The notes under the pieces are model-generated. The model saw only the letters and a program-made list of their open reading frames with translations, did no database searches and was not told the origin of the DNA. The position numbers and the translations under genes were made by a program. Shown here in pieces: positions 10,538 to 25,674 of a DNA stretch of 30,390 nucleotides (its first letter is position 1; each line of letters starts with the position of its first letter). Where the stretch lies: IMG/VR virus record IMGVR_UViG_3300025732_000186, positions 1 to 30,390 of that record; one strand, written 5' to 3'. This DNA is from a virus.

Positions 10538-11356
10538 ATGTCTCAAGCTAACAATGCACTTGCCGTTAAGCCGGGTAATATCAACACGCTTCTGCTCAAG
10601 AACCGTCAAGCAATCGAGTCCGCATTGCCGCGCCACATGAGCGCCGACCGACTTCTCCGAATCGCCCTCACTGAGGTTCGCAAGAACCCAGACCTCGGGC
10701 AGTGTGAGCCGATGAGCTTCCTCGGAGCCGTCGTTCAAGCCGCCCAGCTCGGACTCGAGCCCGGATCCGCGCTCGGTCACGCCTACCTGGTTCCCTATAA
10801 CAACCGAAAGACCGGGAAGAAGGAATGTCAGATGATCCCCGGCTACCGAGGGTTCATCGACCTCGCCCGCCGCTCCGGTCAGATCGTCAGCATCACCGCG
10901 AAAGCAGTTTATGACTGCGACGCCTTCTCATTCTCGTTCGGTCTGACCGAGAAGCTCGAGCACTCCCCAGCGACGACCCGAACGAAGAACTCCCAGCTCG
11001 TCGCCGTGTATGCAATCGCCCGCCTCAAAGACGGCGGTCATCAATTCGAGGTCATGAGCCGCGAGGAGATCGACTTGATCCGCAAGCGATCGAAGTCAGC
11101 CGACTTCGGACCGTGGGTCACGGACTTCGAGGAAATGGCGAAGAAGACCTGCGTCCGACGCCTCTTCAAGTATCTCCCAGTCAGCGTCGAGATTCAGAAA
11201 GCCGTCACCCTCGATGAGCAGGCAAGCGCCGGACTGGGTCAGGATAACGACCTCCTCGTTCTTCCTGCCGACGAAGAGCTAAAGCCAACCGCATCGGATG
11301 AACTAACAGACCTTAACCAGAGATTCGCTCAAGAGCTGGAGGCTCGTGGCAAATGA
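10538..11356 (+). CDS. recT: RecT single-strand annealing protein
   Basis: A 272-residue RecT-family recombinase that anneals complementary single strands produced by RecE. The hallmark stretch is clear: LLRIALTEVRKNPDLGQCEPMSFLGAVVQAAQLGLEPGSALGHAYLVPY, followed by a variable KKECQMIPGYRGFIDLARRSGQI, then WVTDFEEMAKKTCVRRLFKYLP. The C-terminal ~40 residues are acidic and probably contact host SSB or the nuclease. ATG 10538 has GGGAG seven bases upstream. The TGA overlaps the next start codon (ATGA). Together with RecE it supports replication by recombination or genome circularisation after infection. Confidence 0.92.
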   Translation: MSQANNALAVKPGNINTLLLKNRQAIESALPRHMSADRLLRIALTEVRKNPDLGQCEPMSFLGAVVQAAQLGLEPGSALGHAYLVPYNNRKTGKKECQMIPGYRGFIDLARRSGQIVSITAKAVYDCDAFSFSFGLTEKLEHSPATTRTKNSQLVAVYAIARLKDGGHQFEVMSREEIDLIRKRSKSADFGPWVTDFEEMAKKTCVRRLFKYLPVSVEIQKAVTLDEQASAGLGQDNDLLVLPADEELKPTASDELTDLNQRFAQELEARGK

Positions 11357-11577
11357 CCAACCTTCTAACCGACGATAGCGCGGAATATCTCACGCCGGTT
11401 GATCTTGTCAGTCGATGGAAGAATCAGGTGAGCACTCGAACGCTTGCAAACTGGAGAGTGCAGGGTCTCGGGCCCGAGTTCGTGAAGATCGGGAACCGCG
11501 TCCTGTACGCTCTCCGAAGCGTCATCGCGTGGGAGCAGTCGCGTCAGATGAAGCAGACCGCCAAGCGCGGTCCGTAG
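11353..11577 (+). CDS. Excisionase / AlpA-like HTH protein
   Basis: A 74-residue protein with the pattern YLTPVDLVSRW ... TLANWRVQGLGPEFVKIGNRVLYALRSVIAWEQS. This is the MerR-like winged helix of excisionase and AlpA-type DNA-binding proteins (helix-turn-helix, then the G-P-x-F-x-K-I-G-x-R-V-x-Y wing). It is coupled to RecT by ATGA and is the last gene before a strong terminator. As the phage has a tyrosine integrase, an Xis role is plausible although the genes are 8 kb apart. A transcriptional regulator of the AlpA type is the alternative. Confidence 0.75.
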   Translation: MTNLLTDDSAEYLTPVDLVSRWKNQVSTRTLANWRVQGLGPEFVKIGNRVLYALRSVIAWEQSRQMKQTAKRGP

Positions 11578-11601
11578 GTAATTATGAAGTCTCCTCCCTC
11601 C

Positions 11602-11634
11602 GGGGGGCCAGGGAGACCGGCCCCCCATTTTTTC
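11602..11634 (+). terminator. Rho-independent terminator of the RecET operon
   Basis: An 8-bp stem, GGGGGGCC (11602-11609) with GGCCCCCC (11619-11626), and a 9-nt loop, is followed by ATTTTTTC. It lies 25 bases after the excisionase-like gene. Confidence 0.92.
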
Positions 11635-11636
11635 GT

Positions 11637-11664
11637 TTGTTCTTGCCAAGTCACCCAATAGAAT
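11637..11664 (+). promoter_or_regulatory. Candidate promoter for the endolysin operon
   Basis: TTGTTC (11637-11642) and TAGAAT (11659-11664, five of six matches to the -10 consensus) are 16 bp apart, directly behind the RecET terminator. Predicted start near 11671, with the first ribosome site (GAGAG) about 15 bases further on. Confidence 0.55.
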
Positions 11665-11684
11665 CCGAGAAAGAGAGTCAGAGA

Positions 11685-11936
11685 ATGGAATCGGTCATGG
11701 ATAACGTCACCGCGATGAATACGAAGCTCGTCAGAGTCACTCCGGATCAGCTTCGCGCACTCGCAAACCGTCTCGAGATCCAAGCCCGCGAGAACAGTCT
11801 CCCCGGAGACGTCGTCCTCGTGGACTTCACGCGCACGATCACTCTGATCTATGACCCCGAGCTGCGCTTTCATCACTGGAAAGGGTCATCGCTTGAAGTC
11901 CAAGCCAGCGACGCAGACGCGCTCCCGATCCAGTAG
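11685..11936 (+). CDS. Hypothetical protein, 83 residues
   Basis: First gene of the endolysin operon. Starts MESVMDNVTAMNTKLVRVTPDQLRALANRLEIQARE, a helical N-terminal half, followed by strands VVLVDFTRTITLIYDPELRFHHW. ATG 11685 is preceded by a GAGAG tract. A second ATG at 11697 has no ribosome site. The 3' end overlaps the next gene by 44 bases. No family recognised; a small alpha/beta protein of unknown role. Confidence 0.65.
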   Translation: MESVMDNVTAMNTKLVRVTPDQLRALANRLEIQARENSLPGDVVLVDFTRTITLIYDPELRFHHWKGSSLEVQASDADALPIQ

Positions 11937-12177
11937 GAAGCCGAACGAGTTCGAGCGTCTCGTCCTGCTCGAGACCGCCCGGGAGATCATGAGGACCGCG
12001 GAGCGCGATCCCAGACAGACCCTCAGAGCCCTCTATGGGTTTATCCAGCTTCAGTCGCTTTCCGTCGCCCAGCTCTATGACTTCATCACGCGATGGAAGG
12101 AAAAGCGTTTGTGGAACGACCCACGACTTCAGATGCTAACCCGAGGCATCGGATACAAGCCCCGAGGAGAAGCATGA
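11893..12177 (+). CDS. Hypothetical helical protein, 94 residues
   Basis: The frame encodes KPNEFERLVLLETAREIMRTAERDPRQTLRALYGFIQLQSLSVAQLYDFITRWKEKRLW, a charged, all-helical small protein with a basic start and end. The start is uncertain. TTG 11893 has AAGGG eight bases upstream and is preferred; an ATG at 11851 lies further inside the previous gene without a ribosome site. The stop overlaps the next ATG (ATGA). No family recognised. Repeated basic helices suggest nucleic-acid or protein binding, but this is a guess. Confidence 0.6.
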   Translation: MKSKPATQTRSRSSRKPNEFERLVLLETAREIMRTAERDPRQTLRALYGFIQLQSLSVAQLYDFITRWKEKRLWNDPRLQMLTRGIGYKPRGEA

Positions 12178-12416
12178 AGCCCAAGTCCCCCAGCTCGAAG
12201 AAAGTCTCAGCGAAAGGCTCGAACCTCAGGTGGGCCAGCGTGTACCTCCTGATTAGCGAGGACGCTCGAGAGATCGCGGTCGTATCGATCGCCGACGCGC
12301 CGCAACGGATCCAAGACTTTCTAAGCTCGATCGAGAAGTGGCTTTCCGTTATGAGGGAGCAGGCGGACGCCGTCGATCAGCTCCAGAAAGAGTCCGAGGG
12401 AGAGAGCATCCAATGA
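12174..12416 (+). CDS. Hypothetical protein, 80 residues
   Basis: MKPKSPSSKKVSAKGSNLRW leads into strands ASVYLLISEDAREIAVVSIADAP and a helix RIQDFLSSIEKWLSVMREQADAVDQLQKE. It has a lysine-rich N-terminus and an acidic C-terminus. ATG 12174 overlaps the previous stop and has GAGGAGA in front, one of the best ribosome sites in the operon. The stop overlaps the endolysin start (ATGA), so its translation is tied to endolysin production. No family recognised and no membrane span that would suggest a holin. Confidence 0.7.
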   Translation: MKPKSPSSKKVSAKGSNLRWASVYLLISEDAREIAVVSIADAPQRIQDFLSSIEKWLSVMREQADAVDQLQKESEGESIQ

Positions 12417-12943
12417 ACGCGAAGATCGTGAGCAGCCCAGACTGTAGACCGCGCCGCGAGAAGATCTGGACCGGGATCGTCATCCATCACACCGGGATCC
12501 CAGACTCCGAGCCGAAGGATCCGAGCGCCTGGGCGAAGTTCGGAGACGCTATGACCTCATGGATGAGCACGAAGGACGACAACTACCTCTCCGCCCACTA
12601 CCAGATCAATCGAGACGGATCGATCGTTCAGCTCGTGGACCCCGCCACGCACGAGTCCTTTCACGCGGGCAAGTCAGCCTATTGGCACCCAGATCGTCGT
12701 CAGGTGCTCGAGGACTGGAACCGCTACTCGATCGGGATCGAACTGATCGGAGACGGGAACCGGATCGCATATCACGATTTGCAATATCAGGCGTTGGCTG
12801 ACCTATGCCGCGAGCTCATGGAGCGTTTCAGGACGATCCACCCCCTCGCGATCGTGGGTCACGAGCAGATCGCCCCGGGACGGAAGTCGGACCCCGGAGC
12901 GTCGTTCGACTGGAGACGATTCTTTCGCCTGTTGTACGCATGA
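12413..12943 (+). CDS. Endolysin, N-acetylmuramoyl-L-alanine amidase (Amidase_2)
   Basis: A 176-residue zinc amidase that cuts the bond between MurNAc and the stem peptide. Family motifs are in order: GIVIHHTG (first zinc histidine), SAHYQINRDGSIVQLVD, HAGKS, N-x-YSIGIELIGDG, YQALADLCRELMERF and IVGHEQIAPGRKSDPG (second histidine and the acidic or cysteine-position ligand region). No signal peptide or SAR helix is present, so a holin should be needed for release. ATG 12413 has GAGGGAGAG upstream and overlaps the previous stop. It is placed with small early-looking genes rather than with the late structural genes, and far from the holin candidates. Confidence 0.9.
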   Translation: MNAKIVSSPDCRPRREKIWTGIVIHHTGIPDSEPKDPSAWAKFGDAMTSWMSTKDDNYLSAHYQINRDGSIVQLVDPATHESFHAGKSAYWHPDRRQVLEDWNRYSIGIELIGDGNRIAYHDLQYQALADLCRELMERFRTIHPLAIVGHEQIAPGRKSDPGASFDWRRFFRLLYA

Positions 12944-13131
12944 AGAAGCAACCCAAGAGGGGCGACCCGTGTACCGGGTGCGGACGCCTCGGATATTACA
13001 AACTCGGTAAGTGCCTCGACTGCCTCAAGTCGAAGTGTCCTGGTTGTGATCAGGTCAAGATTTTGCGCTCGAAGAAGACTTGCTCCGGGTGTCGCCGGAA
13101 GAAACGCTATCAGCGCGTGAACGAGATTTAA
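12940..13131 (+). CDS. Small zinc-ribbon protein with four CxxC motifs
   Basis: A 63-residue basic protein, MKKQPKRGDPCTGCGRLGYYKLGKC..., with CxxC pairs at residues 11/14, 25/28, 33/36 and 48/51. Eight cysteines could hold two zinc ions in tandem ribbons. The C-terminus (CRRKKRYQRVNEI) is strongly basic, suggesting DNA or RNA binding. Its ATG overlaps the endolysin TGA (ATGA). The 3' end overlaps the convergent CsrA-like gene by 77 bases. No defined family; similar small zinc proteins are frequent in phages. Confidence 0.75.
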   Translation: MKKQPKRGDPCTGCGRLGYYKLGKCLDCLKSKCPGCDQVKILRSKKTCSGCRRKKRYQRVNEI

Positions 13132-13321
13132 GCAGAGCTCCGCGGAGGATCTGGAGAGCTCGAGGAGCCCGGATCGCCAGCCCGACTCGACTTCCTTCAA
13201 TGCGCTTTAGAACGATCTCGATGATCCCGCCGATGACGATCCGCTCGTCGACGCGCATCGTAACGCCGAGCGAGCCCAAGTCGTCCAGATTCAGCCCTTC
13301 CACCTTGTTTTGTGCGTCCAT
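13055..13321 (-). CDS. CsrA/RsmA-like RNA-binding regulator
   Basis: An 88-residue protein. Residues ~23-67 (TMRVDERIVIGGIIEIVLKR ... VGLAIRAPRALQILRGALL) follow the CsrA fold: R-x-x-E-x-I-x-I-G, I-x-I near the centre, G-x-x-V-x-L-x-I-x-A-P, and I-x-R at the end of the fifth strand, where CsrA has its key arginine. A 22-residue N-terminal and a ~20-residue Ser/Arg/Lys-rich C-terminal extension are not in host CsrA. CsrA dimers bind GGA in hairpin loops over ribosome sites. ATG 13321 has no Shine-Dalgarno and sits right after a promoter-like sequence, so the mRNA may be leaderless. Identity is by eye. Confidence 0.7.
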   Translation of the reverse strand: MDAQNKVEGLNLDDLGSLGVTMRVDERIVIGGIIEIVLKRIEGSRVGLAIRAPRALQILRGALLKSRSRADSVSSGDTRSKSSSSAKS

Positions 13322-13330
13322 GCTGGAAAC

Positions 13331-13360
13331 AGTATGCAAAGCGGGCGAGCCTTGTGTCCA
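13331..13360 (-). promoter_or_regulatory. Candidate promoter giving a leaderless csrA-like mRNA
   Basis: On the minus strand TGGACA (13360-13355, five of six matches) and CATACT (13336-13331, four of six) are 18 bp apart. The expected start of transcription is within about 5 bases of the ATG at 13321, leaving no room for a ribosome binding site. Confidence 0.5.
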
Positions 13361-13370
13361 TGATTTACTT

Positions 13371-13457
13371 GCGGGCGTAGCTCAGCGGTAGAGCGGCCCT
13401 GAAAATCGACGACGGTCGCAGGGCAGGCCGCGGGTTCGACCCCCGTCGCCCGCGCCA
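13371..13457 (+). tRNA. tRNA-like gene with a 19-nt anticodon loop
   Basis: A complete cloverleaf frame is visible: acceptor GCGGGCG/CGCCCGC, T8-A9, D-arm GCTC-AGCGGTA-GAGC, a 5-nt variable loop, T-arm GCGGG-TTCGACC-CCCGT, discriminator G, and encoded CCA. The anticodon stem GCCCT (13396-13400) / AGGGC (13420-13424) encloses 19 nt instead of 7. The excess can fold into a small hairpin CGAC-GACG-GTCG. The loop contains CTGAAAATC, which resembles the Phe (GAA) loop, but no normal stem supports it. A stronger alternative fold pairs GCGGCC (13393-13398) with GGCCGC (13426-13431). It may be a tRNA mimic or a decayed tRNA rather than a decoding tRNA. Confidence 0.7.
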
Positions 13458-13502
13458 CTCCAGGAGGGAGTGTCCGTCTGGCAGAGCTGGACGTAAAACA
13501 GG

Positions 13503-13535
13503 AAGCCCCGACTCCAAGGACTGGAGCCGGGGCTT
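13503..13535. terminator. Bidirectional terminator hairpin
   Basis: AAGCCCCG (13503-13510) pairs with CGGGGCTT (13528-13535). The stem continues, after one A-C mismatch, with CTCCA/TGGAG around a 5-nt loop. Short T-runs lie on both sides. It separates the plus-strand tRNA-like gene from the minus-strand small-gene operon that ends at 13550. Confidence 0.7.
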
Positions 13536-13549
13536 TCCCTTGGTAGGTC

Positions 13550-13717
13550 CTAGCGAGACCGCTTCTTTCGTTTCTTCGCCGGATGAGATAGGACGGAGAT
13601 CTTCTTCTCCGGTTCGTTCGCTTTGGGTTTGGGAAGGTAAGCGACGAACACGAGTCCCCCGACGAGGATGAAAGTGGTGAGCCACGCTAGGAGTTCGACG
13701 AGATCAAGTTCTTGCAT
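13550..13717 (-). CDS. Single-span membrane peptide, 55 residues
   Basis: Starts MQELDLVELLAWLTTFILVG, with a hydrophobic span at about residues 7-29 and a highly basic cytoplasmic-type C-terminus ending HPAKKRKKRSR. By the positive-inside rule the N-terminus would face the periplasm. It is the last gene of the minus-strand run of very small genes, 46 bases after the coiled-coil protein, and is followed by the bidirectional hairpin. No family recognised. Size and topology fit superinfection-exclusion or membrane-associated regulatory peptides as well as lysis accessories. Confidence 0.6.
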   Translation of the reverse strand: MQELDLVELLAWLTTFILVGGLVFVAYLPKPKANEPEKKISVLSHPAKKRKKRSR

Positions 13718-13763
13718 CGTTCGATTAGAGCCGCCGATCTCACGATAAGCAAGCCGCTCCGCG

Positions 13764-13973
13764 TCACTTGTCGCGATTCATTCTGACCTGATACTGGACG
13801 AGCTCCACTCTCGTCCGGAGCTCGCGGATCTCGTCGCGAAGCGCGTCCAGACGCCCGATCTCCTCGACCGCGAACCGAATATGCTCCAGAGCCTCCGCCG
13901 CCTCCACGTCGCCGTTTTTCCGCTGCTCCACTGTCCACGCCGCCAGCCGCTCGAGCCGATCTTTCCTGTTCAT
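13764..13973 (-). CDS. Small coiled-coil protein, 69 residues
   Basis: MNRKDRLERLAAWTVEQRKNG is followed by an uninterrupted helix EAAEALEHIRFAVEEIGRLDALRDEIRELRTRVELVQYQVRMN with a regular heptad of L, I and V, so a dimeric or trimeric coiled coil is likely. ATG 13973 overlaps the TGA of the upstream zinc peptide (ATGA) and is preceded by GAGGAGGGCAAGGA, a good ribosome site. No family recognised. Confidence 0.65.
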   Translation of the reverse strand: MNRKDRLERLAAWTVEQRKNGDVEAAEALEHIRFAVEEIGRLDALRDEIRELRTRVELVQYQVRMNRDK

Positions 13974-14098
13974 TCCTTGCCCTCCTCGTCCCTGATCCCC
14001 GCGTAGCAGGGAAAACAGACCCAGACGACCGCGCCGCGGGTGTCTTCCGCACGGCAGAGTTGCCCACTCTCTCCACACTCTTGGCATTGCGAGATCAT
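13970..14098 (-). CDS. Zinc-finger peptide, 42 residues
   Basis: MISQCQECGESGQLCRAED ... VWVCFPCYAGIRDEEGKE. The two CxxC pairs (CQEC, CFPC) plus an extra cysteine make a one-zinc ribbon. ATG 14098 is preceded by GAGGAC. The stop overlaps the start of the coiled-coil gene (ATGA). The gene sits in an unbroken chain of six tiny minus-strand genes, three of them zinc proteins. No family recognised. Confidence 0.65.
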   Translation of the reverse strand: MISQCQECGESGQLCRAEDTRGAVVWVCFPCYAGIRDEEGKE

Positions 14099-14100
14099 CG

Positions 14101-14298
14101 TCAGTCCTCCACTTTCGTCAGAGTTTCAGCCTTGAGGCATTTCACCGTCTCGTTCCCTGAGCTGTTTCTCAGGAGAACCTTCACCGACTTGCCCAAGACC
14201 TCGAGCACGGTTCCGCGGAAGACGTTCTCGTATTTCTGCGTCGCGTTCCGCGTGTAGACCACTTGATCGCCCGGAGCGAAGTTCTGGATCTCGCTCAT
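14101..14298 (-). CDS. Small SH3-like beta-barrel protein, 65 residues
   Basis: MSEIQNFAPGDQVVYTRNATQK ... FRGTVLEVLGKSVKVLLRNSSGNETVKCLKAETLTKVED. The pattern F-x-P-G-D-x-V-x-Y, G-x-V-x-E-V, V-K-V, then a final strand is that of a KOW/SH3-like five-strand barrel. Such folds bind RNA polymerase, ribosomes or DNA. It is coupled to the Fis-type gene upstream by ATGA. A transcription- or translation-modifying role is a reasonable guess but not shown. Confidence 0.65.
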   Translation of the reverse strand: MSEIQNFAPGDQVVYTRNATQKYENVFRGTVLEVLGKSVKVLLRNSSGNETVKCLKAETLTKVED

Positions 14299-14633
14299 GA
14301 CGCGATCCCCCTCGCCTCAAGCCTTTTGCGCTCGTTCCTTTGTCGATAACACTCAAGACACCGCCGCCGCGGACGACCCTTCGAGGCATAGTGATAGGTG
14401 TTCGCCTCGTCGAACAGATGCCCGCGAAGGCATCGCGTCGGATCCAGCTTCCGATCCATCGGAGAGGGATCCATCTTGAGCCCGTGCTTGCGGATCTTCA
14501 TGAGGAAGGTCGAACGCTGGAGCCCCAGGAGCCGAGCCGCCTCCGTTCGGTTGTTGTTCGCACTCGCCAGAGCGCGGATCAGATATTTTCGTTCGAGCTT
14601 GTTCTGGAGCTCGTCCAGCGAAAAGGACTTCAT
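14295..14633 (-). CDS. Fis-type HTH fused to zinc-finger, regulator
   Basis: A 112-residue protein. Residues 1-53 (FSLDELQNKLERKYLIRALASANNNRTEAARLLGLQRSTFLMKIRKHGL) are a textbook Fis/NtrC C-terminal helix-turn-helix. Residues ~68-100 contain a second unit, CLRGHLFDEANTYHYA ... RRRCLECYRQRNERKR, the C ... H ... C-x-x-C pattern of HNH-like or zinc-finger modules in phage proteins. No AAA+ or response domain is present, so it is not a sigma-54 activator by itself. ATG 14633 shares a base with the upstream TGA (TGATG); GTG 14636 is an alternative. Probably binds phage or host DNA as a regulator. Confidence 0.75.
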   Translation of the reverse strand: MKSFSLDELQNKLERKYLIRALASANNNRTEAARLLGLQRSTFLMKIRKHGLKMDPSPMDRKLDPTRCLRGHLFDEANTYHYASKGRPRRRCLECYRQRNERKRLEARGIAS

Positions 14634-14815
14634 CACTCGTCCGCCGTGAAGATCTGATCCCAGACCGCGAGCTCCGCGAGCCTCTGGCGCAGGACCGGAT
14701 CATCGCCCTGGCCCCTGATCTTCCCCGTCCCGTTGCACTTCTCACAGGGCTCTTGGCGGATCAGGATCGCGTCCCGGCACCACCCGCTGCCCTCGCACCT
14801 CTTGCACGTCTCCAT
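14633..14815 (-). CDS. DnaJ-type CxxCxGxG zinc-finger protein, 60 residues
   Basis: METCKRCEGSGWCRDAILIRQEPCEKCNGTGKIRG has two C-x-x-C-x-G-x-G repeats, as in the DnaJ cysteine-rich domain, holding one zinc. The remaining ~25 residues are helical. ATG 14815 is eight bases after AAAGGAG; the upstream in-frame GTG at 14824 lies too close to that site. It is the first gene of the minus-strand small-gene operon, directly behind the GGTATACC palindrome. A stand-alone DnaJ-type finger could bind protein or RNA. Function unknown. Confidence 0.7.
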   Translation of the reverse strand: METCKRCEGSGWCRDAILIRQEPCEKCNGTGKIRGQGDDPVLRQRLAELAVWDQIFTADE

Positions 14816-14828
14816 GCCCCACACTCCT

Positions 14829-14842
14829 TTCGGTATACCAAA
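14829..14842. promoter_or_regulatory. Palindromic operator candidate
   Basis: GGTATACC (14832-14839) is a perfect palindrome, extended by TT and AA with one mismatch pair. It lies between the divergent starts of the DnaJ-finger gene and the plus-strand gene, 14 bases upstream of the former, in an A/T-rich gap where promoters are expected. Confidence 0.45.
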
Positions 14843-14879
14843 AGCACTAGCCGACTTTTTTCTAGTTTCAAAAGGAAAA

Positions 14880-14918
14880 ATGCCGGGTTCCCTTGACTGG
14901 AGCGCCGGGAGAGAATGA
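14880..14918 (+). CDS. Possible 12-residue leader peptide
   Basis: AAAAGGAAAA precedes ATG 14880 and the frame MPGSLDWSAGRE ends with TGA four bases before the next ATG (14923). The ribosome site of the following gene lies inside it. It could couple or time translation of the 69-residue protein. There is no run of a single amino acid, so classical attenuation is not indicated. Confidence 0.3.
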   Translation: MPGSLDWSAGRE

Positions 14919-14922
14919 ACTC

Positions 14923-15132
14923 ATGGGCGTGTCAGATTTCAGCGCGTACTTGAAGAGGGCTAGGAGGATGGAGAAGCTCGAGATCGTTCTGGATCGTGCG
15001 AAGGAAGTCTTCGCAGCCTCCCAGTATGGTCAGCCCGCGGAGCGCGTCTGGGAAGCCTTGGCGAAGCTCAGGGAAGCGATCGGAGAAGCCGACCGCACCC
15101 CACCCCCTCACGACTCGAGCAAGGGCCCATAA
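14923..15132 (+). CDS. Hypothetical helical protein, 69 residues
   Basis: MGVSDFSAYLKRARRMEKLEIVLDRAKEVF... is mostly helical and charged, with a proline-rich, probably disordered end (DRTPPPHDSSKGP). GGGAGAG precedes ATG 14923. It is alone on the plus strand between two minus-strand operons and is followed by an imperfect hairpin (about 15139-15170) without a U-tract. An in-frame TTG at 14893 is possible but less likely. No family recognised. Confidence 0.5.
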   Translation: MGVSDFSAYLKRARRMEKLEIVLDRAKEVFAASQYGQPAERVWEALAKLREAIGEADRTPPPHDSSKGP

Positions 15133-15199
15133 AGCAAAGCGGCCCCGAGATCCGAAGATCCCGGAGCCGCCGATCACGCCCAGTCGGGTAGGAGCCGAC

Positions 15200-15424
15200 C
15201 TAGCGCGAAACCCCATTCCGTCGCGCCTCGTTCCACGCGTTGTCCATCATGTCGTCGAAAGCCTCGAGCCGATCCTCGGGGATCAACCTACGCTGCGAGC
15301 ACGTCCAGACCGGGACGATCCCAGTCCGCGACGCGAAGACTCGCCCGAGCTCCTCGACGTCCGCGATGATCGTCCGATGCCCCCAGAGCGGATGCCTGTC
15401 CGCGTCGATCACTTTGATCTTCAT
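15200..15424 (-). CDS. Hypothetical protein, 74 residues
   Basis: MKIKVIDADRHPLWGHRTIIADVEELGRVFASRTGIVPVWTCSQRRLIPEDRLEAFDDMMDNAW... appears to be a small alpha/beta protein: two strands, a helix, two strands, and a C-terminal helix. ATG 15424 overlaps the previous stop (ATGA) with GGAAGGA in front. Last gene of the methyltransferase operon. No family recognised. Confidence 0.6.
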   Translation of the reverse strand: MKIKVIDADRHPLWGHRTIIADVEELGRVFASRTGIVPVWTCSQRRLIPEDRLEAFDDMMDNAWNEARRNGVSR

Positions 15425-15666
15425 TCCTTCCTCCCGTGAGTGATGTTCGCCACCACCACGAGCTGTAGCATGGTGAGCCAGTTGCGCGGCTTCTCCTTGT
15501 CCAAGAACCAGCGGTTCGCCGCCATCTCGAACGCCGACCGATCGAGCGAGTCGTTCCGAGCGATGAACTCCTCGATCAGTCGCAGCTCGTCCGCCTTGAG
15601 TTTGTCCGCGTGTTTCTTGTGCGGGTAACGCGTCATCGCCGCCCGCATCGCCTCGAGCCGAGTCAT
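15421..15666 (-). CDS. Hypothetical helical protein, 81 residues
   Basis: MTRLEAMRAAMTRYPHKKHADKLKADELRLIEEFIARNDSLDRSAFEMAANRWFLDKEKPRNWLTMLQLVVVANITHGRKE is all-helical with a tryptophan-rich C-terminal third. Both ends are coupled: ATGA with the 128-residue gene upstream and ATGA with the gene downstream. It belongs to the modification operon but shows no known catalytic motif. Confidence 0.6.
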   Translation of the reverse strand: MTRLEAMRAAMTRYPHKKHADKLKADELRLIEEFIARNDSLDRSAFEMAANRWFLDKEKPRNWLTMLQLVVVANITHGRKE

Positions 15667-16049
15667 GACTTCACCGCCTTCCTCTTCTTCTTCCCGCCCT
15701 CGAGCGAGACCCGCCCCTCTTCCGTGGTCTGGAAGACGAAGAGCCAAGCCCCCCGAGGATTCGGACGATCCTCGAGCCTCTCCGCCGCCCAGCCGATGAG
15801 CCTCACGCTCGTCGACCCAGTCCCGCGCTCGAGGACGTAGTCCTCGCCCTCGTGGATGAGCGTCCGATTCAGCCAGAGCGTCGTCCAGTCCTTCGGGATC
15901 TCGAGCGGGAGCGCCATCTCGAGACCTGAGATCCGCCCGCGGAAGAGCTCCCGGGAGAACGACTCGTCGATCGTATGGACCGCGTAGCTTGGAAGCGCGT
16001 CGAACTCGAACCCGAGCTGATCCGGAGAGCTGTAGATCGCCCGTTTCAT
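15663..16049 (-). CDS. Hypothetical protein, 128 residues, in modification operon
   Basis: MKRAIYSSPDQLGFEFDALP leads into a beta-rich middle (GLEMALPLEIPKDWTTLWLNRTLIHEGEDYVLERGTGS...) and a basic end (GGKKKRKAVKS). ATG 16049 overlaps the methyltransferase stop (ATGA). An open frame extends far upstream of this ATG, but that part only mirrors the methyltransferase on another frame. No family recognised. Direct coupling to the methyltransferase suggests partnership in DNA modification or in control of it. Confidence 0.6.
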   Translation of the reverse strand: MKRAIYSSPDQLGFEFDALPSYAVHTIDESFSRELFRGRISGLEMALPLEIPKDWTTLWLNRTLIHEGEDYVLERGTGSTSVRLIGWAAERLEDRPNPRGAWLFVFQTTEEGRVSLEGGKKKRKAVKS

Positions 16050-16969
16050 AGACCGGCCCTCACCTGTTCGATCACGCCGCGAGCGACCGGAGGACAGACC
16101 GCGTTGCCGAGCATGTGAAGCGCCAGCGCCCGGGACTCCGGGAGGACGTAGTCGACCGGGAATCCCATGATGATCCGAGCCTCGCGACTCGTGAGCATCC
16201 TCATCCGATCGCCGTCGACGAGAGCGAAGCGATCCTTCGTCGTCAGCGTCCCGAACGGCTTGTCCATGTCGCGACCCCCAGTCTCGGAGCCATAGAACGC
16301 GAACATGCAGCGCGAGCCGAACCGCTTCTTCGCGTTCGCGATCCGCTCGAGCGTCTTCGGAGCGCGTCCCTTCCTCCTGATCGGACTCCAGTTCCCAGTC
16401 TCCCACTCGATCACCGAGCGAGCCGAGCGATGAGCCATCCGGGGAGACTCGATCTCGATCTTCCTCGTCTGAGTCCCGACCACGAACAGACGCTCGCGAG
16501 CCTGAGGGACTCCGAAGTCCGCCGAGTTCAGGACGTTGAACGTGAGCTTGTAGCCGTACCGCTCGAGCGCCGTCCGCCAGAGATCGAAGAGCTCCCACTT
16601 CTGGAACTCCGGGACGTTCTCGACGACGATCGCCTTCGGACGATTCACGGCGACGCAGTCGATCACCGCCCAAGCCGTCTGCCTCGAGTCGTCGTGCTGG
16701 GGAGAGTCCTTCCCACGAGCCTTCGAGTGGCCCTGACAGCATGGAGACGCGAGGAGAATGTCGTGAGCCGGGAGCTCCGTCCAGTTCGCCTGCCTGAGAT
16801 CCTGACAAGCGTGGACCGTCTGGGGATGGTTCTGAGCGTGAGCGTCGACCGCCTCCTTCCAGTGATTCGCCGCCCAGAGGACGCGGACTCCAGCCTGGGC
16901 AGCTCCAGTCGAGAAGCCGCCAGCGCCAGCGAAGAGATCGATTGCAGTGGTTTTGTTGTTCTTCTTCAT
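16046..16969 (-). CDS. C5-cytosine DNA methyltransferase
   Basis: A 307-residue enzyme transferring methyl from SAM to cytosine C5. Visible motifs: I DLFAGAGGFSTG (residues 10-21), motif IV ASPCCQGHS with the catalytic cysteine in an SPCCQ variant of PPCQG, VI VVENVPEF, VIII QARERLFVVG, IX/X region LTSREARIIMGFP and GNAVCPP near the C-terminus. The target domain between VIII and IX is short (~80 residues), so a short site is likely; specificity is not readable. No restriction partner is nearby, as expected for a protective phage enzyme. Its Shine-Dalgarno is in the loop of a hairpin shared with the upstream gene. Confidence 0.93.
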   Translation of the reverse strand: MKKNNKTTAIDLFAGAGGFSTGAAQAGVRVLWAANHWKEAVDAHAQNHPQTVHACQDLRQANWTELPAHDILLASPCCQGHSKARGKDSPQHDDSRQTAWAVIDCVAVNRPKAIVVENVPEFQKWELFDLWRTALERYGYKLTFNVLNSADFGVPQARERLFVVGTQTRKIEIESPRMAHRSARSVIEWETGNWSPIRRKGRAPKTLERIANAKKRFGSRCMFAFYGSETGGRDMDKPFGTLTTKDRFALVDGDRMRMLTSREARIIMGFPVDYVLPESRALALHMLGNAVCPPVARGVIEQVRAGL

Positions 16970-16974
16970 ATCGA

Positions 16975-16991
16975 CGGGCCTCCTACGCCCG
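16975..16991 (-). promoter_or_regulatory. SD-in-loop hairpin before the methyltransferase
   Basis: On the minus strand CGGGC-GTAGGAG-GCCCG forms a 5-bp G/C stem presenting AGGAG in a 7-nt loop, five bases before ATG 16969. The same 17 bases occur before the PP-loop gene. A protein that binds GGA in loops, such as CsrA, could block ribosomes here. Confidence 0.65.
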
Positions 16992-17024
16992 ATTGGTTGA
17001 CTCGCCTTCGTCAGTCGCGGAGTT

Positions 17025-17987
17025 TCAGTAGCCCCCAGATCCGCATCCGTGATTCATCTTCCAGTCGTTCAGCATCGCCCCCAGCGCCTCGCCGCTCATG
17101 TGCGCGTACTTCGCCTTTACCTTCTCGAGCTTCTTGGTCAGCGTCTCTTTCGAGTTGAAGACCCCGTGGTTCTTCTCGCTTCCAGCGTACCGACCGAGCT
17201 TTCTCTCCTCGATCCGGACCCATTCGTCGAACTTCTCCGGAGCGTTCAGATGGAGCCAGTAGAGCTCCTCCGGACTCATGTACGGGCAGCGCATGCAGTT
17301 GCTCGGTAGGACCGTGAACCCGTGATCAGCGATGAGCTTCTGACAAGCGACGCGATCCAGAGAGAGATCGATCAGCGGGAACTCGCGCTCGATGTGCTTC
17401 CAGAACGAGTCCTCTTCCGCCGCATGCTGTTTCTCTTCGAGACGCTTCGACTTCTCCATGCGTCCTTCCTCGCCTTTCGCGAAACCGATCAGGACGCGGA
17501 TCCTTCCGTTCTCCTGACCGAACCTCTTGATCGCCCTCTTCCCGCATCCACGGGACTTCGCACTCACGTCGAACCCGTATCCGAAGCGATCGTTCACGAA
17601 CTCGTCGAGGAACTTGTAGATCGGATCGAGCTTGAGCTTGAGGGTGCAGGTCTTCGTCCCGAGCTGGACGAGCGTCGGCTTGAACTCGCCGCCTTCGTCC
17701 CGGAGCTGGGGAGAGATCAGATCCGGCCAGCTCTCACAGTGAAAGCCTTGGTCCTTCGTCAGATGGAAGAACGGGATCTTGTGGACGGCGCACAGCTTCT
17801 TGGTCTGGATGACCCAGTCTTTCGTGTGCGGGTGTTCGTCGCCGGTATCACTCATGACGACGATGAACTCGCCGTCCGCATACCGACTACGGAAGGAAGG
17901 ATCGGAGACGTAAAGAAGCAGAAGCGCCGCACTATCTTGCCCGCCTCCGTAGCTAAGCACCGTCAGCTTTTGACGCGCATGATTCAT
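17025..17987 (-). CDS. PAPS-reductase-like PP-loop protein
   Basis: A 320-residue member of the adenine nucleotide alpha-hydrolase superfamily. The PP-loop is SYGGGQDSAALLLL (residues 12-25), followed by VVMSDTGDEHPHT, the typical second strand that binds adenylate. Cysteines cluster as in DndC/PAPS-reductase-like proteins: TCTLKLKLDPI (near 114), RGCGKR, SNCMRCPYMSPEELYWL (near 232) and HGCGSGG at the C-terminus. Such enzymes activate a substrate with ATP and handle sulphur or modify bases; DndC acts in DNA phosphorothioation. Whether this one modifies DNA, tRNA or sulphate is open. It leads the operon containing the methyltransferase. AGGAGG before ATG 17987 is inside a hairpin loop. Confidence 0.8.
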   Translation of the reverse strand: MNHARQKLTVLSYGGGQDSAALLLLYVSDPSFRSRYADGEFIVVMSDTGDEHPHTKDWVIQTKKLCAVHKIPFFHLTKDQGFHCESWPDLISPQLRDEGGEFKPTLVQLGTKTCTLKLKLDPIYKFLDEFVNDRFGYGFDVSAKSRGCGKRAIKRFGQENGRIRVLIGFAKGEEGRMEKSKRLEEKQHAAEEDSFWKHIEREFPLIDLSLDRVACQKLIADHGFTVLPSNCMRCPYMSPEELYWLHLNAPEKFDEWVRIEERKLGRYAGSEKNHGVFNSKETLTKKLEKVKAKYAHMSGEALGAMLNDWKMNHGCGSGGY

Positions 17988-18016
17988 GGACTCGGGCCTC
18001 CTACGCCCGTAAGTCC
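17988..18016 (-). promoter_or_regulatory. SD-in-loop hairpin before the PP-loop gene
   Basis: On the minus strand GGACT-(TA)-CGGGC-GTAGGAG-GCCCG-AGTCC forms two stacked 5-bp stems with a 2-nt bulge. AGGAG is in the loop and the stem ends directly at ATG 17987. The inner 17 bases are identical to the element before the methyltransferase. Confidence 0.7.
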
Positions 18017-18126
18017 ATTATCCCATTGGCATATTCGATTCCAAAGGAAATTAGTCTGGTATTAACCCCGAGCTTTCGCGCACTTAGCTATGAGTGGTCC
18101 AGTAGCTCCAGATCTGGAAAGAGACG

Positions 18127-18156
18127 GGGCCCAGACCCCGAAGGATCTGAGCCCCC
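18127..18156 (-). terminator. 13-bp UUCG hairpin, terminator or stable RNA end
   Basis: On the minus strand two 13-base arms pair fully (two G-U pairs) around a UUCG tetraloop, followed by GTCTCTTTCC, a poor U-tract. It lies about 50 bases downstream of the tRNA-Gln-like sequence and would end or protect that transcript. Confidence 0.65.
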
Positions 18157-21756: not shown

Positions 21757-22512
21757 TTATTTCAGAACCCGCTCTTCGACGAACTTGATCGCCTCGAGCT
21801 GTCCGGTTGTCGCGTCGCTCTTGAACTTTTCGAGAAGCCCGGCCTGCTTTGCCGTCTTGTAGGAATGAACCGCGAGCGAGATCAGGTTCCCGCGCTCTGC
21901 GCTGTCCGTGGTGTGCGGAAGCGCCTGAAGGTTGTTCATCGCGGCAAAGAACATTGAGCTTGCCTCGCCCTCGTTCTTCGACCAGATCTCTTCCTCACTC
22001 ATTCCAGCTCCGCGCATCTGCGCGAGCAGGTCGGTCTCGATCTTTTGCCAGCCCTTGACCTCGTCCATGCGGTACTTCATCGCAATTTGCATCTGCTTCA
22101 GCTCGTACTGCTTGAACTGAATGTCGATGCTGATGCGCGCGCGCTTGATGTTGTCGCGCTTAGAGTCACCGAGCTCTTCTAGGTCGCACTCAAGCTCTTG
22201 GATCTCGAGCTTCTTCATCTCGAAGTCCTTAGCCAAGTACATTGCCTGATCGAACTGGACCTTCTGCTCCAGCATCGCTTGGTGGAACTTCGCGTGAACC
22301 GTCGGGAAGTGGTAGTCGTTGATGATGGAGACCTTCTGCGCGTCGGTCCTCCACATGTGCGTATTCTCAAGAACCGCCGCAAGGTGCTTTGAGTTCTCTT
22401 GAAGGAATCCGACGTCCTCGGCCTTCATGATCGGGAGATTCTTGACCGCCTCAATAATTCCAGTGACGGTCTGCTCCCCCAATAGGACGGGAAGGTTCAT
22501 TGCGCTACTCAT
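21757..22512 (-). CDS. Hypothetical helical protein of the tail module, 251 residues
   Basis: MSSAMNLPVLLGEQTVTGIIEAVKNLPIM... followed by long charged helices (residues ~75-175, e.g. LEIQELECDLEELGDSKRDNIKRARISIDIQFKQYELKQMQ) that should form a coiled coil, and a globular C-terminal ~70 residues (SMFFAAMNNLQALPHTTDSAERGNLISLAVHSYKTAKQAG). No signal peptide or membrane span. It overlaps the 77-residue gene by eight bases. Location between fibre genes suggests a fibre chaperone or assembly factor, but no motif proves it. Confidence 0.65.
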   Translation of the reverse strand: MSSAMNLPVLLGEQTVTGIIEAVKNLPIMKAEDVGFLQENSKHLAAVLENTHMWRTDAQKVSIINDYHFPTVHAKFHQAMLEQKVQFDQAMYLAKDFEMKKLEIQELECDLEELGDSKRDNIKRARISIDIQFKQYELKQMQIAMKYRMDEVKGWQKIETDLLAQMRGAGMSEEEIWSKNEGEASSMFFAAMNNLQALPHTTDSAERGNLISLAVHSYKTAKQAGLLEKFKSDATTGQLEAIKFVEERVLK

Positions 22513-22738
22513 TCGACGTCATCTCCTGAAGTGTTTTTGGGACGACAGTCTCGCCCTCGACCTTCAGTAAACACCGATTGCCCTCGACTTCAAGAACTTC
22601 TACCGGGATCTCCGGAATGAGGTCGAATGTGAACGTCGACCAGATCCCGAGGCCTTGATAGTCCTGACCGCCCTGGCCTTCATCCATGCCGATTGCGATC
22701 ACGTCGTTTGATTCATTTGCTTTGACGCAGCGGTACAT
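22505..22738 (-). CDS. Hypothetical protein, 77 residues
   Basis: MYRCVKANESNDVIAIGMDEGQGGQDYQGLGIWSTFTFDLIPEIPVEVLEVEGNRCLLKVEGETVVPKTL... is beta-rich and acidic, with the alternating pattern of a small barrel or sandwich. It follows the kelch fibre by 11 bases and overlaps the next gene by eight. It may be a fibre cap or assembly helper. No family recognised. Confidence 0.6.
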   Translation of the reverse strand: MYRCVKANESNDVIAIGMDEGQGGQDYQGLGIWSTFTFDLIPEIPVEVLEVEGNRCLLKVEGETVVPKTLQEMTSNE

Positions 22739-22749
22739 GATGATCCCCC

Positions 22750-24705
22750 TTATGCCAGCGGCACAGTGCTTTCGATGAATGCGTTGTAGAAAGCCGAAGG
22801 CCTAGTCGTGACTAGCCGCTTCTCAGTCACAGCCGATGCAGAGCCAGTGAAGCCTCCGCACACAGTCATCGACTGACTCGAACCAGCTCCAGCCATTCCA
22901 CGCCTCGCGGTGTTGAGAGTGACTGAAGTTGACCATGTCGAACCGTTGAACAGATAGTTCTGAGCAGTGAAGTTTGATTCGAACCCGCCGCAAAAAACGG
23001 TATCGGATTGAGTTCCACAAGATGCCGATTCCCGAGTTGCTACAGGAAGCGCCGCTCCGGCAGACCACACCGTGCCGTTAAACTGCTCGGTGTTGGCATT
23101 GTTCACGCCGTTGAACCCGCCAGATGCCAGTGCGGAGTTCTGCCCTCCTGACGCTGCAATTGCGTTGCGAGCGAGCAAGAGAGATCCCGTGGCCGACCAG
23201 GTGGTTCCGTTGTATTTCTCGCAGACACTTGAATAGGCTCCAGAAAATCCTCCGATCGAAAGCGTTGCGCGCTGAGATCCGACGCCGGCAACGTTGTTTC
23301 GAGCGGTGTTCATGGACGCGATCGAGGACCAAGCAAACCCGTTGTAAAGCTCAGCGGTCGCCAGATTTGCCCCAGAATGCTGTCCGCCAAATTTCAGTGC
23401 TGCGTTGATGAAACCAGAACCCCCATGGCTGTACGCCAGGACGCTAGACGCCGAAACCACAGACCAGGTCGAGCCGTTGAATCGCTCATTTGTCCCAAGT
23501 CCAGCGGTGCCAGTGCTGTTTCCACCAAAAGCGAGCATCGCGTCGCGCGACCCACAGCCGGCAAGGTTTTGCCTTGCGGTATTCAAGTTTCCGCTAGATG
23601 CCCAAGCCGTGAGATCAGTCAGTCCAAGATCAGTGTGGTCCTCAAGAGCTTCCGGCAAAAGTTTTTGCGTGATCGAAAAAAGCCCTCCTCCGACTACAGA
23701 GGAACTTAGATCGGAGTAAGGAATAGCCGCGACTTGTGTTGCGACCAAGTACGATGAAAAGAATTTTTCCGCGGTGGAGTACCAGTTAGTTCCCATGAAG
23801 TTTCCATCGTAACCACCATAAGCCATCGCGGCAGTTCCGGTTCCAGAGCCAGCACAAGAGGAACGGGACGTCCCAAGATTCGTTGAGGCTGAAAATGCTG
23901 ATCCGTTGAATTTGTATACCCCGGCGCTGTTTCCTCCAATGACTCCACCGCCAAAGAACATGCACGCCGCTCTGACGCCAGAGCTACCGCCTTGCCCAAG
24001 AGCGACTGGCATGGAAGGCCCGGATGACCAGGAGGTTCCGTTAAAAAGTTCTGTTGCGGCTGTTGGGGTCGCATTGCCATCCCAACCAGCGGCGACGAAA
24101 GCCGTCGTAAATTTGCCGACGGCTCCTGGACCGTTGTGAGCTGCAAGCATATTTGCGCCAGTGCTCCAAACTGTTCCGTTAAAATAGTCGGTGCTGGCTC
24201 CCATGGATCCACCGCTTCTAACTCCGCCAACAATCAGTGCATTATTTCTAGCGCCGATACCTCGAATTGCCCTTCGGGTTACCGGCAACGCAGGACCAGA
24301 TGACCAAGCAGAGCCATTGAAGAACTGGACATTAGCAATGTCAGCAAAAGATGAGTTTTGGCCTCCAGCCACACACGCGGCAGTGAAAGAGCCAAAGACT
24401 CCGGTGTATCTGGAGTTAGCCACGAGGTTCGGCAAACTTGCCCAAACCGTCCCGTTAAATCGTTGGGTGGATAAATGGTCGTTATTGTTTCCAGGAAGTG
24501 CAATAGCAGACTGCTGAGTCCCTAATCCTTGGGCCTCAAGTCGCGCCACGGACATTGATCCAGTCGCCGCCCAAACATCACCGAAAGAAACGGACGAGGC
24601 AGTCTGACGAACGATCGCCTCGCAGCTCGAGCCGAGCGGAGTCTGGAACTCGGTGTAGTCCTGTGTGATAGCGCGAAGGGTTTTCGGGAACGTAACGGAA
24701 GCCAT
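22750..24705 (-). CDS. Kelch-type double beta-propeller tail fibre / adhesin
   Basis: A 651-residue protein built mainly of kelch-like repeats. Each ~50-residue blade has a GG (GGQNSS, GGVRSG, GGYDGN, GGNSTG, GGFNGV) and ends with FNGxxWS (e.g. FNGSAWSSG, FNGTVWSTG, YNGTTWSAT). Blades fall into two sets of about six (residues ~45-325 and ~365-630), separated by VAAIPYSDLSSSVVGGGLFS, so two six-bladed propellers are likely. A 40-residue N-terminal segment (TFPKTLRAITQDYTEFQ) is probably the attachment part. Propellers bind glycans or proteins; a host-recognition role is inferred. Base composition differs from its neighbours (fewer GATC, more A/T), suggesting acquisition. ATG shares a base with the upstream stop (TAATG). 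Confidence 0.8.
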   Translation of the reverse strand: MASVTFPKTLRAITQDYTEFQTPLGSSCEAIVRQTASSVSFGDVWAATGSMSVARLEAQGLGTQQSAIALPGNNNDHLSTQRFNGTVWASLPNLVANSRYTGVFGSFTAACVAGGQNSSFADIANVQFFNGSAWSSGPALPVTRRAIRGIGARNNALIVGGVRSGGSMGASTDYFNGTVWSTGANMLAAHNGPGAVGKFTTAFVAAGWDGNATPTAATELFNGTSWSSGPSMPVALGQGGSSGVRAACMFFGGGVIGGNSAGVYKFNGSAFSASTNLGTSRSSCAGSGTGTAAMAYGGYDGNFMGTNWYSTAEKFFSSYLVATQVAAIPYSDLSSSVVGGGLFSITQKLLPEALEDHTDLGLTDLTAWASSGNLNTARQNLAGCGSRDAMLAFGGNSTGTAGLGTNERFNGSTWSVVSASSVLAYSHGGSGFINAALKFGGQHSGANLATAELYNGFAWSSIASMNTARNNVAGVGSQRATLSIGGFSGAYSSVCEKYNGTTWSATGSLLLARNAIAASGGQNSALASGGFNGVNNANTEQFNGTVWSAGAALPVATRESASCGTQSDTVFCGGFESNFTAQNYLFNGSTWSTSVTLNTARRGMAGAGSSQSMTVCGGFTGSASAVTEKRLVTTRPSAFYNAFIESTVPLA

Positions 24706-25655
24706 TAGAGCGCCTCGCTTTCAAGGACTAGGACAAAGTCGTTCGGAACTCCGTCTGGGATCGACTCGACGTCGAGCCGGAAGATATCAGTCGATGCGTA
24801 GGCGGTCCCAGTGTTAGAGATCACAGCGTTGGAGCTCGACGCGTAGTCCCCAGCGGATCCGGACACCGACGGCTTGTTCGCAAAGATTGACGTCCAAGAA
24901 CTTCCCCCGTTCTGGGAGACTTTGACGTCCACCTGGAGCGTCCCGCCCGTTCCGTTACGAGTGAGATACAGCTTCGCACCGAGGATCTTTCGCGACTGTT
25001 TCGCCCGCTCATACAGGAGCCCAGTTTGTACGCTCCCGCCGACGTAATACGGACCGTTCACTTCAAACAAAACCTGCTGGCGCGGCGTCACGCTTTGCCA
25101 TGCGCCGTTTATGTAGATCTGGAACTGAGCCGATTCAGTGTTGAAAATCAGGAGAGACGACGCGGGAGCGACGATTGCATCGCGCTGCGCCTGGGTCATT
25201 CGCGGAATCAGAACGCCCTTCGAGGAGGACTGAAGATCTAGGATCGCGCTCGGATCCTTTGAGGAGATCGCCGCTCCAACCGTTAGAGAAACGAGCCCCC
25301 CCATATTGTCGGAGCCGTCGATTGCAGCCGACGCCGAGCTTGTCACGGATCCGTCAATCTGAGTCCTGACCACTCGATCCGCCGTCGTTCCGACGGAACC
25401 CGCAATCGAGTTTGCAGTAATCAGCGCGAGGACCGCCTCTTTGAGCTGATCGCTCGTCGCCTTATCAAGCGATAGTCCAGCCTCGAGAATGACGTTCGAG
25501 ATCTCTTCTTGAACCGCGTTCAGCCACGCCGCGGAGATCACGGTTCCGGGAGTCCCCGTCAGCGCGTCGCCGTCCGTGAAATAGCCGACGAGCGCCCCTT
25601 CTGGCGGCGGAATCGGAGCTGAAGCGACTGTCCCGTCTGTATCGATTCTATGCAT
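24705..25655 (-). CDS. Tail fibre with shared N-terminal docking domain
   Basis: A 316-residue protein. Residues 1-75 (RIDTDGTVASAPIPPPEG ... VISAAWLNAVQEEISNVILEAGLSLDKA) align with the N-terminus of the Collar fibre. The middle (SLTVGAAISSKDPSAILDLQSSSKGVLIPRMTQAQRDAI) is a module common in phage and surface proteins just before variable C-domains, followed by LLIFNTESAQFQIYINGAWQ. The last ~120 residues (VLFEVNGPYYVGGSVQTGLL...) are a beta-rich tip. It follows the gp48-like baseplate gene by 19 bases, where the first fibre gene of Mu-like phages usually is. Confidence 0.82.
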   Translation of the reverse strand: MHRIDTDGTVASAPIPPPEGALVGYFTDGDALTGTPGTVISAAWLNAVQEEISNVILEAGLSLDKATSDQLKEAVLALITANSIAGSVGTTADRVVRTQIDGSVTSSASAAIDGSDNMGGLVSLTVGAAISSKDPSAILDLQSSSKGVLIPRMTQAQRDAIVAPASSLLIFNTESAQFQIYINGAWQSVTPRQQVLFEVNGPYYVGGSVQTGLLYERAKQSRKILGAKLYLTRNGTGGTLQVDVKVSQNGGSSWTSIFANKPSVSGSAGDYASSSNAVISNTGTAYASTDIFRLDVESIPDGVPNDFVLVLESEAL

Positions 25656-25674
25656 AACTCGTCACCCTACTTTG

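What the first reader, a model, noticed from the sequence alone, without database searches (positions are those of the whole stretch)
16975..18016. Duplicated hairpin with the Shine-Dalgarno in its loop before the PP-loop gene and the methyltransferase
The same 17 bases (CGGGC-GTAGGAG-GCCCG on the minus strand) precede both start codons; in front of the PP-loop gene a second 5-bp stem ends exactly at the ATG. Two identical structured leaders one kilobase apart in one operon point to shared translational control. GGA in the loop of a GC hairpin over a ribosome site is the classic CsrA target, and a CsrA-like protein is encoded about 3.6 kb away. A phage CsrA that times its own DNA-modification genes would, as far as I know, be new; the link is inference.
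Basis: partly seen in the sequence, partly recalled or inferred. Interest (0 to 1): 0.75.

Follow-up and report, generated by a model that had tools for sequence, protein, structure and literature searches.

The report
Phage ribosome-site hairpins, not CsrA targets
Two neighbouring phage genes each start with the same small RNA hairpin that holds the ribosome-binding sequence in its loop; the same design, with different stem sequences, turns up before genes of many unrelated phages, so it looks like a general phage translation signal rather than a target of this phage's CsrA protein.

Summary
CGGGC-GTAGGAG-GCCCG occurs exactly twice, each copy 5 nt before an ATG (PP-loop/PAPS-reductase-like gene; C5 cytosine methyltransferase), and a genuine CsrA-family ORF lies 3.65 kb away.

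The useful result lies outside the window. I fixed only loop, inner two pairs and start-codon spacing in scans of 2.9 million viral contigs. The three outer stem pairs completed in 11/74 (GTAGGAG) and 18/98 (ATAGGAG) distinct sites, against 1.5 and 1.8 in shuffles (0 of 20,000 reached either value). They completed in 0/62 without the ATG and 0/80 without the Shine-Dalgarno (SD) loop. Stems differ between phages, and some phages repeat the element before 5-10 genes. This is a recurrent, compensated RNA element tied to translation starts: a hairpin that presents the SD in its loop.

The CsrA link is not supported. CsrA was found in 0 of 37 other records carrying the motif and in 2 of 40 comparison records. 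Four csrA-positive reference phages lack the hairpins, the loop reads UAGGA rather than ANGGA, and phage csrA is already published. CsrA or another loop-binding protein remains possible but untested.

Best reading: a structured, SD-presenting ribosome-binding site. Whether it raises, insulates or regulates translation is inferred.

The parts
17993..18009 (-). SD-loop hairpin 1, CGGGC-GTAGGAG-GCCCG, before the PP-loop gene
   Evidence: predicted unpaired probability of the SD 0.96
17985..18018 (-). extended inverted repeat AUGGACU..AGUCCAU around hairpin 1, including AU of the start codon; its outer 5' arm is probably not transcribed from the predicted promoter
   Evidence: fold (-18.9 kcal/mol, z -4.6); promoter position
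18017..18044 (-). sigma-70-like promoter TTGGAA-16-GATAAT with extended TG; predicted start near 18010
   Evidence: 1 found, 0.5 expected in shuffles, so weak on its own
18126..18155 (-). intrinsic-terminator-like hairpin upstream of the PP-loop unit
   Evidence: 13 pairs, tail GTCTCTTT
17025..17987 (-). PP-loop / PAPS-reductase-like gene, 320 aa
   Evidence: phrog_424 8.6e-22; Pfam PF01507 below cut-off
16975..16991 (-). SD-loop hairpin 2, same 17 bases, before the methyltransferase
   Evidence: predicted unpaired probability of the SD 0.74
16046..16969 (-). C5 cytosine DNA methyltransferase, 307 aa
   Evidence: PF00145 9.6e-52; TIGR00675 159 bits
13055..13321 (-). phage CsrA-family protein, 88 aa, with N-terminal extension
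   Evidence: PF02599 38.8 bits over cut-off 27; matches solved CsrA chains weakly, 5dmb 9e-4; NCBIfam csrA models below cut-off

Best explanation
Each 17-base repeat is a structured ribosome-binding site: a 5-bp GC stem that holds the Shine-Dalgarno AGGAG unpaired in a 7-nt loop at a fixed 5 nt (AGGAG at 10 nt) before the ATG. Its most likely job is to present the SD to the 30S subunit in a constant, context-independent form, and at hairpin 1 also to cap the mRNA 5' end. The two adjacent genes would then get defined initiation whatever sequence flanks them. Shown: the hairpins; the same design with different, compensating stems before genes of many unrelated phages; dependence on both SD and start codon; predicted SD accessibility. 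Inferred: the effect on translation and its sign, and the 5'-end role.
For: Stem completion to 5 bp or more in 11/74 and 18/98 distinct SD-loop+ATG sites, against shuffle means of 1.5 and 1.8 (0/20,000 reach the observed value); 0/62 with ACG for ATG; 0/80 with a non-SD loop. 28 of the 29 completed sites precede ORFs of at least 50 aa, against 64/143 of the others. Serial use with varied stems: L043 has 6 copies just after a shared promoter-like repeat; G027, G025 and G021 have 9, 10 and 5 copies with stems ATGGC/GCCAT, GTAGC/GCTAC, TATAGC/GCTATA and loops AATAGGAG, ATAGGAG, ATGGGAG, AAAAGGAG, AGGGAG. The SD is predicted unpaired at 0.73 in hairpin sites against 0.50 in other sites with the same SD (p 0.0009). 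In the window, the promoter places the start at hairpin 1.
Against: No expression data. Window leader 2 folds no better than shuffles over 66 nt. Relatives of the PP-loop gene (37-61% identity) lack the hairpin, so it is not conserved with the gene. The L006-type leaders, and the extended hairpin 1, partly pair the start codon, which suggests regulation rather than plain presentation. The scans saw only sites with inner GC pairs and [GA]TAGGAG loops.
Confidence: 0.55

Rival explanations
1. The hairpins are translational operators for a loop-binding protein other than this CsrA (phage- or host-encoded), so that both modification genes are repressed or released together, as with the MS2-type coat-protein operator hairpin.
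For: A constant SD loop with free, compensated stems is what a loop-reading protein would select. Two identical copies lie in one operon. Start-codon pairing in the L006-type leaders and in extended hairpin 1 allows repression.
Against: The constant loop is the SD itself, which needs no protein to be conserved. Loops vary from 6 to 8 nt within one genome. No common protein was looked for or found. Nearly every gene of one cluster carries the element in G025/G027, which suits a general signal better than a specific operator.
Confidence: 0.22
2. The phage's own CsrA-family protein binds both GGA loops and times expression of the two genes.
For: A CsrA ORF is present with the residue equivalent to R44 kept. 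GGA lies in a hairpin loop over the SD. AGGA satisfies the looser A(N)GGA rule (PMC6028588). In leader 1 an ACGGA lies about 50 nt further on in the coding sequence.
Against: 0 of 37 other motif-bearing records have CsrA against 2 of 40 others. Four csrA-positive phages lack the hairpins. The loop is UAGGA, not ANGGA. There is one such hairpin per leader, whereas CsrA dimers favour two sites 10-55 nt apart. Two PP-loop relatives sit in records with CsrA-like matches but no hairpin was seen before their PP-loop genes. Other residues of the RNA-binding edge differ (L4 to V, R6 to M; own gap-free reading).
Confidence: 0.12
3. The hairpin is mainly an mRNA 5'-end or processing stabiliser; the SD sits in the loop so that a tight 5' cap does not block ribosomes.
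For: Predicted start at the base before hairpin 1. In L043 the stem follows the -10-like box by a few bases in 6 genes, and a seventh leader has a GAAA-loop hairpin there instead. In G025/G027 a second hairpin lies directly upstream.
Against: Hairpin 2 has no promoter nearby. Structure in the 40 nt upstream is no stronger at hairpin sites than at others. A stabiliser would not need the SD in the loop, yet completion fails without it.
Confidence: 0.2
4. The inverted repeat around hairpin 1 is a DNA operator for a repressor or the methyltransferase.
For: A long dyad spans 18018-17985 next to the -10 box.
Against: The same 17 bases recur at leader 2 without a promoter. Elsewhere the arms change and the asymmetric centre stays, the reverse of an operator.
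Confidence: 0.06

Closest known systems
CsrA/RsmA target hairpins (e.g. glgC, hfq leaders)
   Same: GGA in the loop of a short hairpin overlapping the SD
   Different: UAGGA instead of ANGGA, one site per leader, found in many phage records without csrA
MS2/PP7-type phage translational operator hairpins (from own knowledge)
   Same: hairpin just before or over the start codon that includes SD bases
   Different: here the SD is wholly in the loop, the stems are free to change, many genes per phage carry it, and no binding protein is known
T4 RegB-sensitive SD sites (GGAG)
   Same: GGAG in the SD; the GGA unpaired and the fourth G constrained fits RegB's structural preference (PMC3014915)
   Different: the A-rich sequence 3' of GGAG in strong RegB sites is absent; no RegB found in 22 records, but that search lacked a positive control
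RNA thermometers (fourU, ROSE)
   Same: hairpin at the SD
   Different: SD is in the loop, predicted unpaired at 37 C, not in the stem
T7-type 5' stem-loop leaders (from own knowledge)
   Same: short hairpin near the 5' end of phage mRNA
   Different: SD is inside the loop instead of downstream

Membership tests
CsrA target site | GGA unpaired in a hairpin loop | tested here: met
   folds
CsrA target site | ANGGA consensus in the loop | tested here: not met
   GUAGGAG reads UAGGA; only the looser A(N)GGA form fits
CsrA target site | two sites 10-55 nt apart for one dimer | tested here: inconclusive
   leader 1 has an ACGGA about 50 nt downstream in codons of the conserved PP-loop motif; none seen in that range in leader 2
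CsrA target site | bound by CsrA | not testable with these tools
   needs gel shift
CsrA target site (as the general explanation) | hairpins co-occur with a csrA gene in the phage | tested here: not met
   0 of 37 records against 2 of 40; csrA-positive phages without hairpins
CsrA protein family (ORF 13055-13321) | PF02599 above curated cut-off | tested here: met
   38.8 bits against 27; NCBIfam equivalog models not met
RNA thermometer | SD sequestered in the stem at low temperature | tested here: not met
   SD in loop, unpaired probability 0.74-0.96
Rfam families | match at gathering score | tested here: not met
   only a tRNA in the window; nothing in L043, L006, L061
RegB target | RegB encoded by the phage | tested here: inconclusive
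   0 of 22, but no control genome rang

The most novel reading that the evidence does not exclude
The SD-in-loop hairpin is a distinct, widespread class of phage translation-initiation element that arose repeatedly and serves as the standard ribosome-binding site of whole gene clusters. In some leaders (L006 type) it is joined to a second conserved hairpin and start-codon pairing, as a riboswitch-like or protein-controlled translational switch.
Probability: 0.35. Interest if true: 0.75.

Novelty: new variant of a known kind. Interest (0 to 1): 0.58.

Why it matters
If confirmed, phages carry a compact, transferable structured ribosome-binding site that can be recognised from sequence. That would help annotate start codons in phage genomes, and it opens a direct test of whether such hairpins raise, insulate or regulate translation. 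It also takes the CsrA explanation off the shortlist for most cases.

Tried and rejected
CsrA co-occurrence was tested and not supported. Conservation in PP-loop relatives: no hairpin in L005 or L014-L020. A contig from the same phage (L004/L008) is 100% identical and gives no covariation. Relatives in annotated phages: none for the PP-loop or CsrA proteins. The genome contigs protein scan found no confirmed relative; a pattern scan gave two hits, one with a full 5-bp stem before a 159-aa ORF in a Nitrospirae MAG (L112) and one with a 5-aa ORF. L007's copy of the 17-mer lies antisense inside a coding region of a GC-rich phage and is taken as chance. Myxococcus phage Mx8, related to L115's replication region, shows no such hairpins above slid controls. 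Stronger upstream structure as a shared feature: rejected (p 0.36). RNA thermometer: rejected because the SD is unpaired. Literature searches in open papers found no description of this element, which is weak evidence of novelty.

Full report
Observation. The window is a 30,390-base IMG/VR virus record with no host assignment. The 17-base sequence CGGGC-GTAGGAG-GCCCG occurs exactly twice, at 18009..17993 and 16991..16975 on the minus strand, and nowhere else within three mismatches; no shuffle of 100 had two. Each copy ends 5 nt before an ATG. The first opens a 320-aa PP-loop protein that matches phage PAPS-reductase-like proteins (phrog_424); the second opens a C5 cytosine methyltransferase (PF00145). 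The two genes are 55 nt apart on one strand. The flanks of the two copies are unrelated, so the 17 bases plus the spacing are what is shared.

Folding. Hairpin 1 with its outer arms folds at -18.9 kcal/mol (z -4.6), and the outer stem takes in the AU of the start codon. Hairpin 2 is a bare 5-bp stem at -9.5 kcal/mol (z -1.1). A sigma-70-like promoter with an extended -10 ends at 18017, and a terminator-like hairpin lies at 18155-18126. If that promoter is used, the RNA starts at about 18010, immediately before the 5-bp stem; the outer arm would then not be transcribed, and hairpin 1 would be the 5' end of the message. The promoter match alone is weak (0.5 expected in shuffles). In predicted ensembles the SD is unpaired at 0.96 (leader 1) and 0.74 (leader 2).

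The exact 17-mer elsewhere. A scan of 2.9 million viral contigs gave three contigs. L008 is a fragment of the same phage, 100% identical. In L006 the 17-mer again lies exactly 5 nt before an ATG, of a 14-codon frame that overlaps the TTG start of a replication-type gene. L007 is an antisense chance match in a coding region.

The decisive test. I then fixed only the inner two pairs, the loop and the ATG spacing (GC[GA]TAGGAGGC-N8-ATG) and left the three outer pairs free. All three outer pairs are Watson-Crick in 11 of 74 distinct GTAGGAG sites and 18 of 98 distinct ATAGGAG sites. Shuffling the 3' arms among sites gives 1.5 and 1.8 on average and never reached the observed values in 20,000 trials; sliding the arms also removes most of the excess. 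The completed stems carry 8 and 11 different outer-arm sequences. Two control scans settle what the completion depends on: with ACG in place of ATG it is 0 of 62, and with ATG but a non-SD loop it is 0 of 80. Of the 29 completed sites 28 precede an open frame of at least 50 codons, against 64 of 143 others. So the hairpin is under selection in connection with a Shine-Dalgarno and a start codon, in many unrelated phages.

Serial users. Reading more of some records shows phages that use the design gene after gene. In L043 six genes, each preceded by the same promoter-like repeat, begin with (T)GTAGC-[GA]TAGGAG-GCTAC or TGTTAC-TAGGAG-GTAACA; one further gene has a GAAA-loop hairpin at the same place. 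In G027, G025 and G021 there are 9, 10 and 5 copies in a row with stems ATGGC/GCCAT, GTAGC/GCTAC and TATAGC/GCTATA, and loops AATAGGAG, ATAGGAG, ATGGGAG, AAAAGGAG and AGGGAG, usually behind another hairpin and a conserved AGTGTCT. Stem changes within one genome are compensated, loop length varies from 6 to 8, and GGAG never changes.

CsrA. The CsrA ORF is genuine by Pfam and aligns without gaps to solved CsrA chains over about 45 residues. But CsrA was found in none of 37 other motif-bearing records (26 with stems of 5 bp or more, one of which is the fragment of this phage) and in 2 of 40 comparison records, both of them records with PP-loop relatives and no hairpin before that gene; one of these matches is below the Pfam cut-off and the other is cut by the contig end. 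Records are mostly fragments, so absence is not proof. Four reference phages known to encode CsrA show no hairpins above slid controls. The loop lacks ANGGA. Phage csrA is published (PMC7366521: 30 of 2517 phages; PMC9144972: phage JC1 with CsrA and PAPS reductase), and 85 annotated records match the E. coli protein.

Mechanism. The simplest account is a structured ribosome-binding site that keeps the SD single-stranded at a set distance from the ATG. Hairpin sites have higher predicted SD accessibility than other sites with the same SD (0.73 against 0.50, p 0.0009), with no difference at the AUG. A 5'-end cap role fits hairpin 1 and L043 but not hairpin 2. A translational operator for an unknown protein is a serious rival, mainly because in the L006-type leaders the start codon is partly paired while the SD stays open. 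No step after RNA folding is shown; sign and size of the effect are inference.

Novelty. Hairpins at ribosome sites are a known kind of thing. I found no report of SD-in-loop hairpins as a recurrent phage element in the open-paper library, and Rfam has no match; subscription papers were not searchable. I file it as a new variant of a known kind.

Noticed in passing
L006, L061, L115, L199, L206 (about 75 nt before the ATG; alignment A2): Five phage records share a longer leader: a -10-like AATAGGCGG, a variable long 5' hairpin, conserved CCTSACC, then the SD-loop hairpin and ATGGCT, with the start codon predicted partly paired. It looks like a regulatory 5' leader; no Rfam match for L006 and L061.
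   Followed up: partly
L239 (G025) 12,400-16,500; L233-L234 (G027) 22,500-26,000; L235-L236 (G021) 10,600-13,100: Gene clusters in which each small gene is preceded by a variable hairpin, AGTGTCT and an SD-loop hairpin, as if built from interchangeable gene units.
   Followed up: partly
L043 1480-7200: Each gene has its own promoter-like repeat (CACGTAAGTATAT...TTGCATATAAAGTGT) and its own terminator, an unusual monocistronic layout.
   Followed up: partly
window 13371-13457 +: tRNA-like gene (Rfam tRNA 50.4 bits) with a four-base anticodon call (gaaa), on the strand opposite the CsrA ORF and right beside it.
   Followed up: no
window 15172-15199: Third GTAGGAG with a 5-bp stem (GTCGG/CCGAC) on the plus strand, with no start codon behind it; probably chance.
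   Followed up: no
L006 3591 +: A second hairpin CGCGC-GTAGGAG-GCGCG about 150 bp from the first, on the opposite strand, without a start codon.
   Followed up: no
L252 (G074:48603-48737), L251 (G075:134532-134618): CsrA-like matches in two large phage records that also carry a relative of the PP-loop gene; phage JC1 has the same pair of genes (PMC9144972), hinting at an association of CsrA with PAPS-reductase-like genes.
   Followed up: no
L112 3608-3631 -: A Nitrospirae MAG gene (159 aa, secreted-protein-like) has the full hairpin GGGGC-GTAGGAG-GCCCC before its ATG, so the design is not limited to phages.
   Followed up: no
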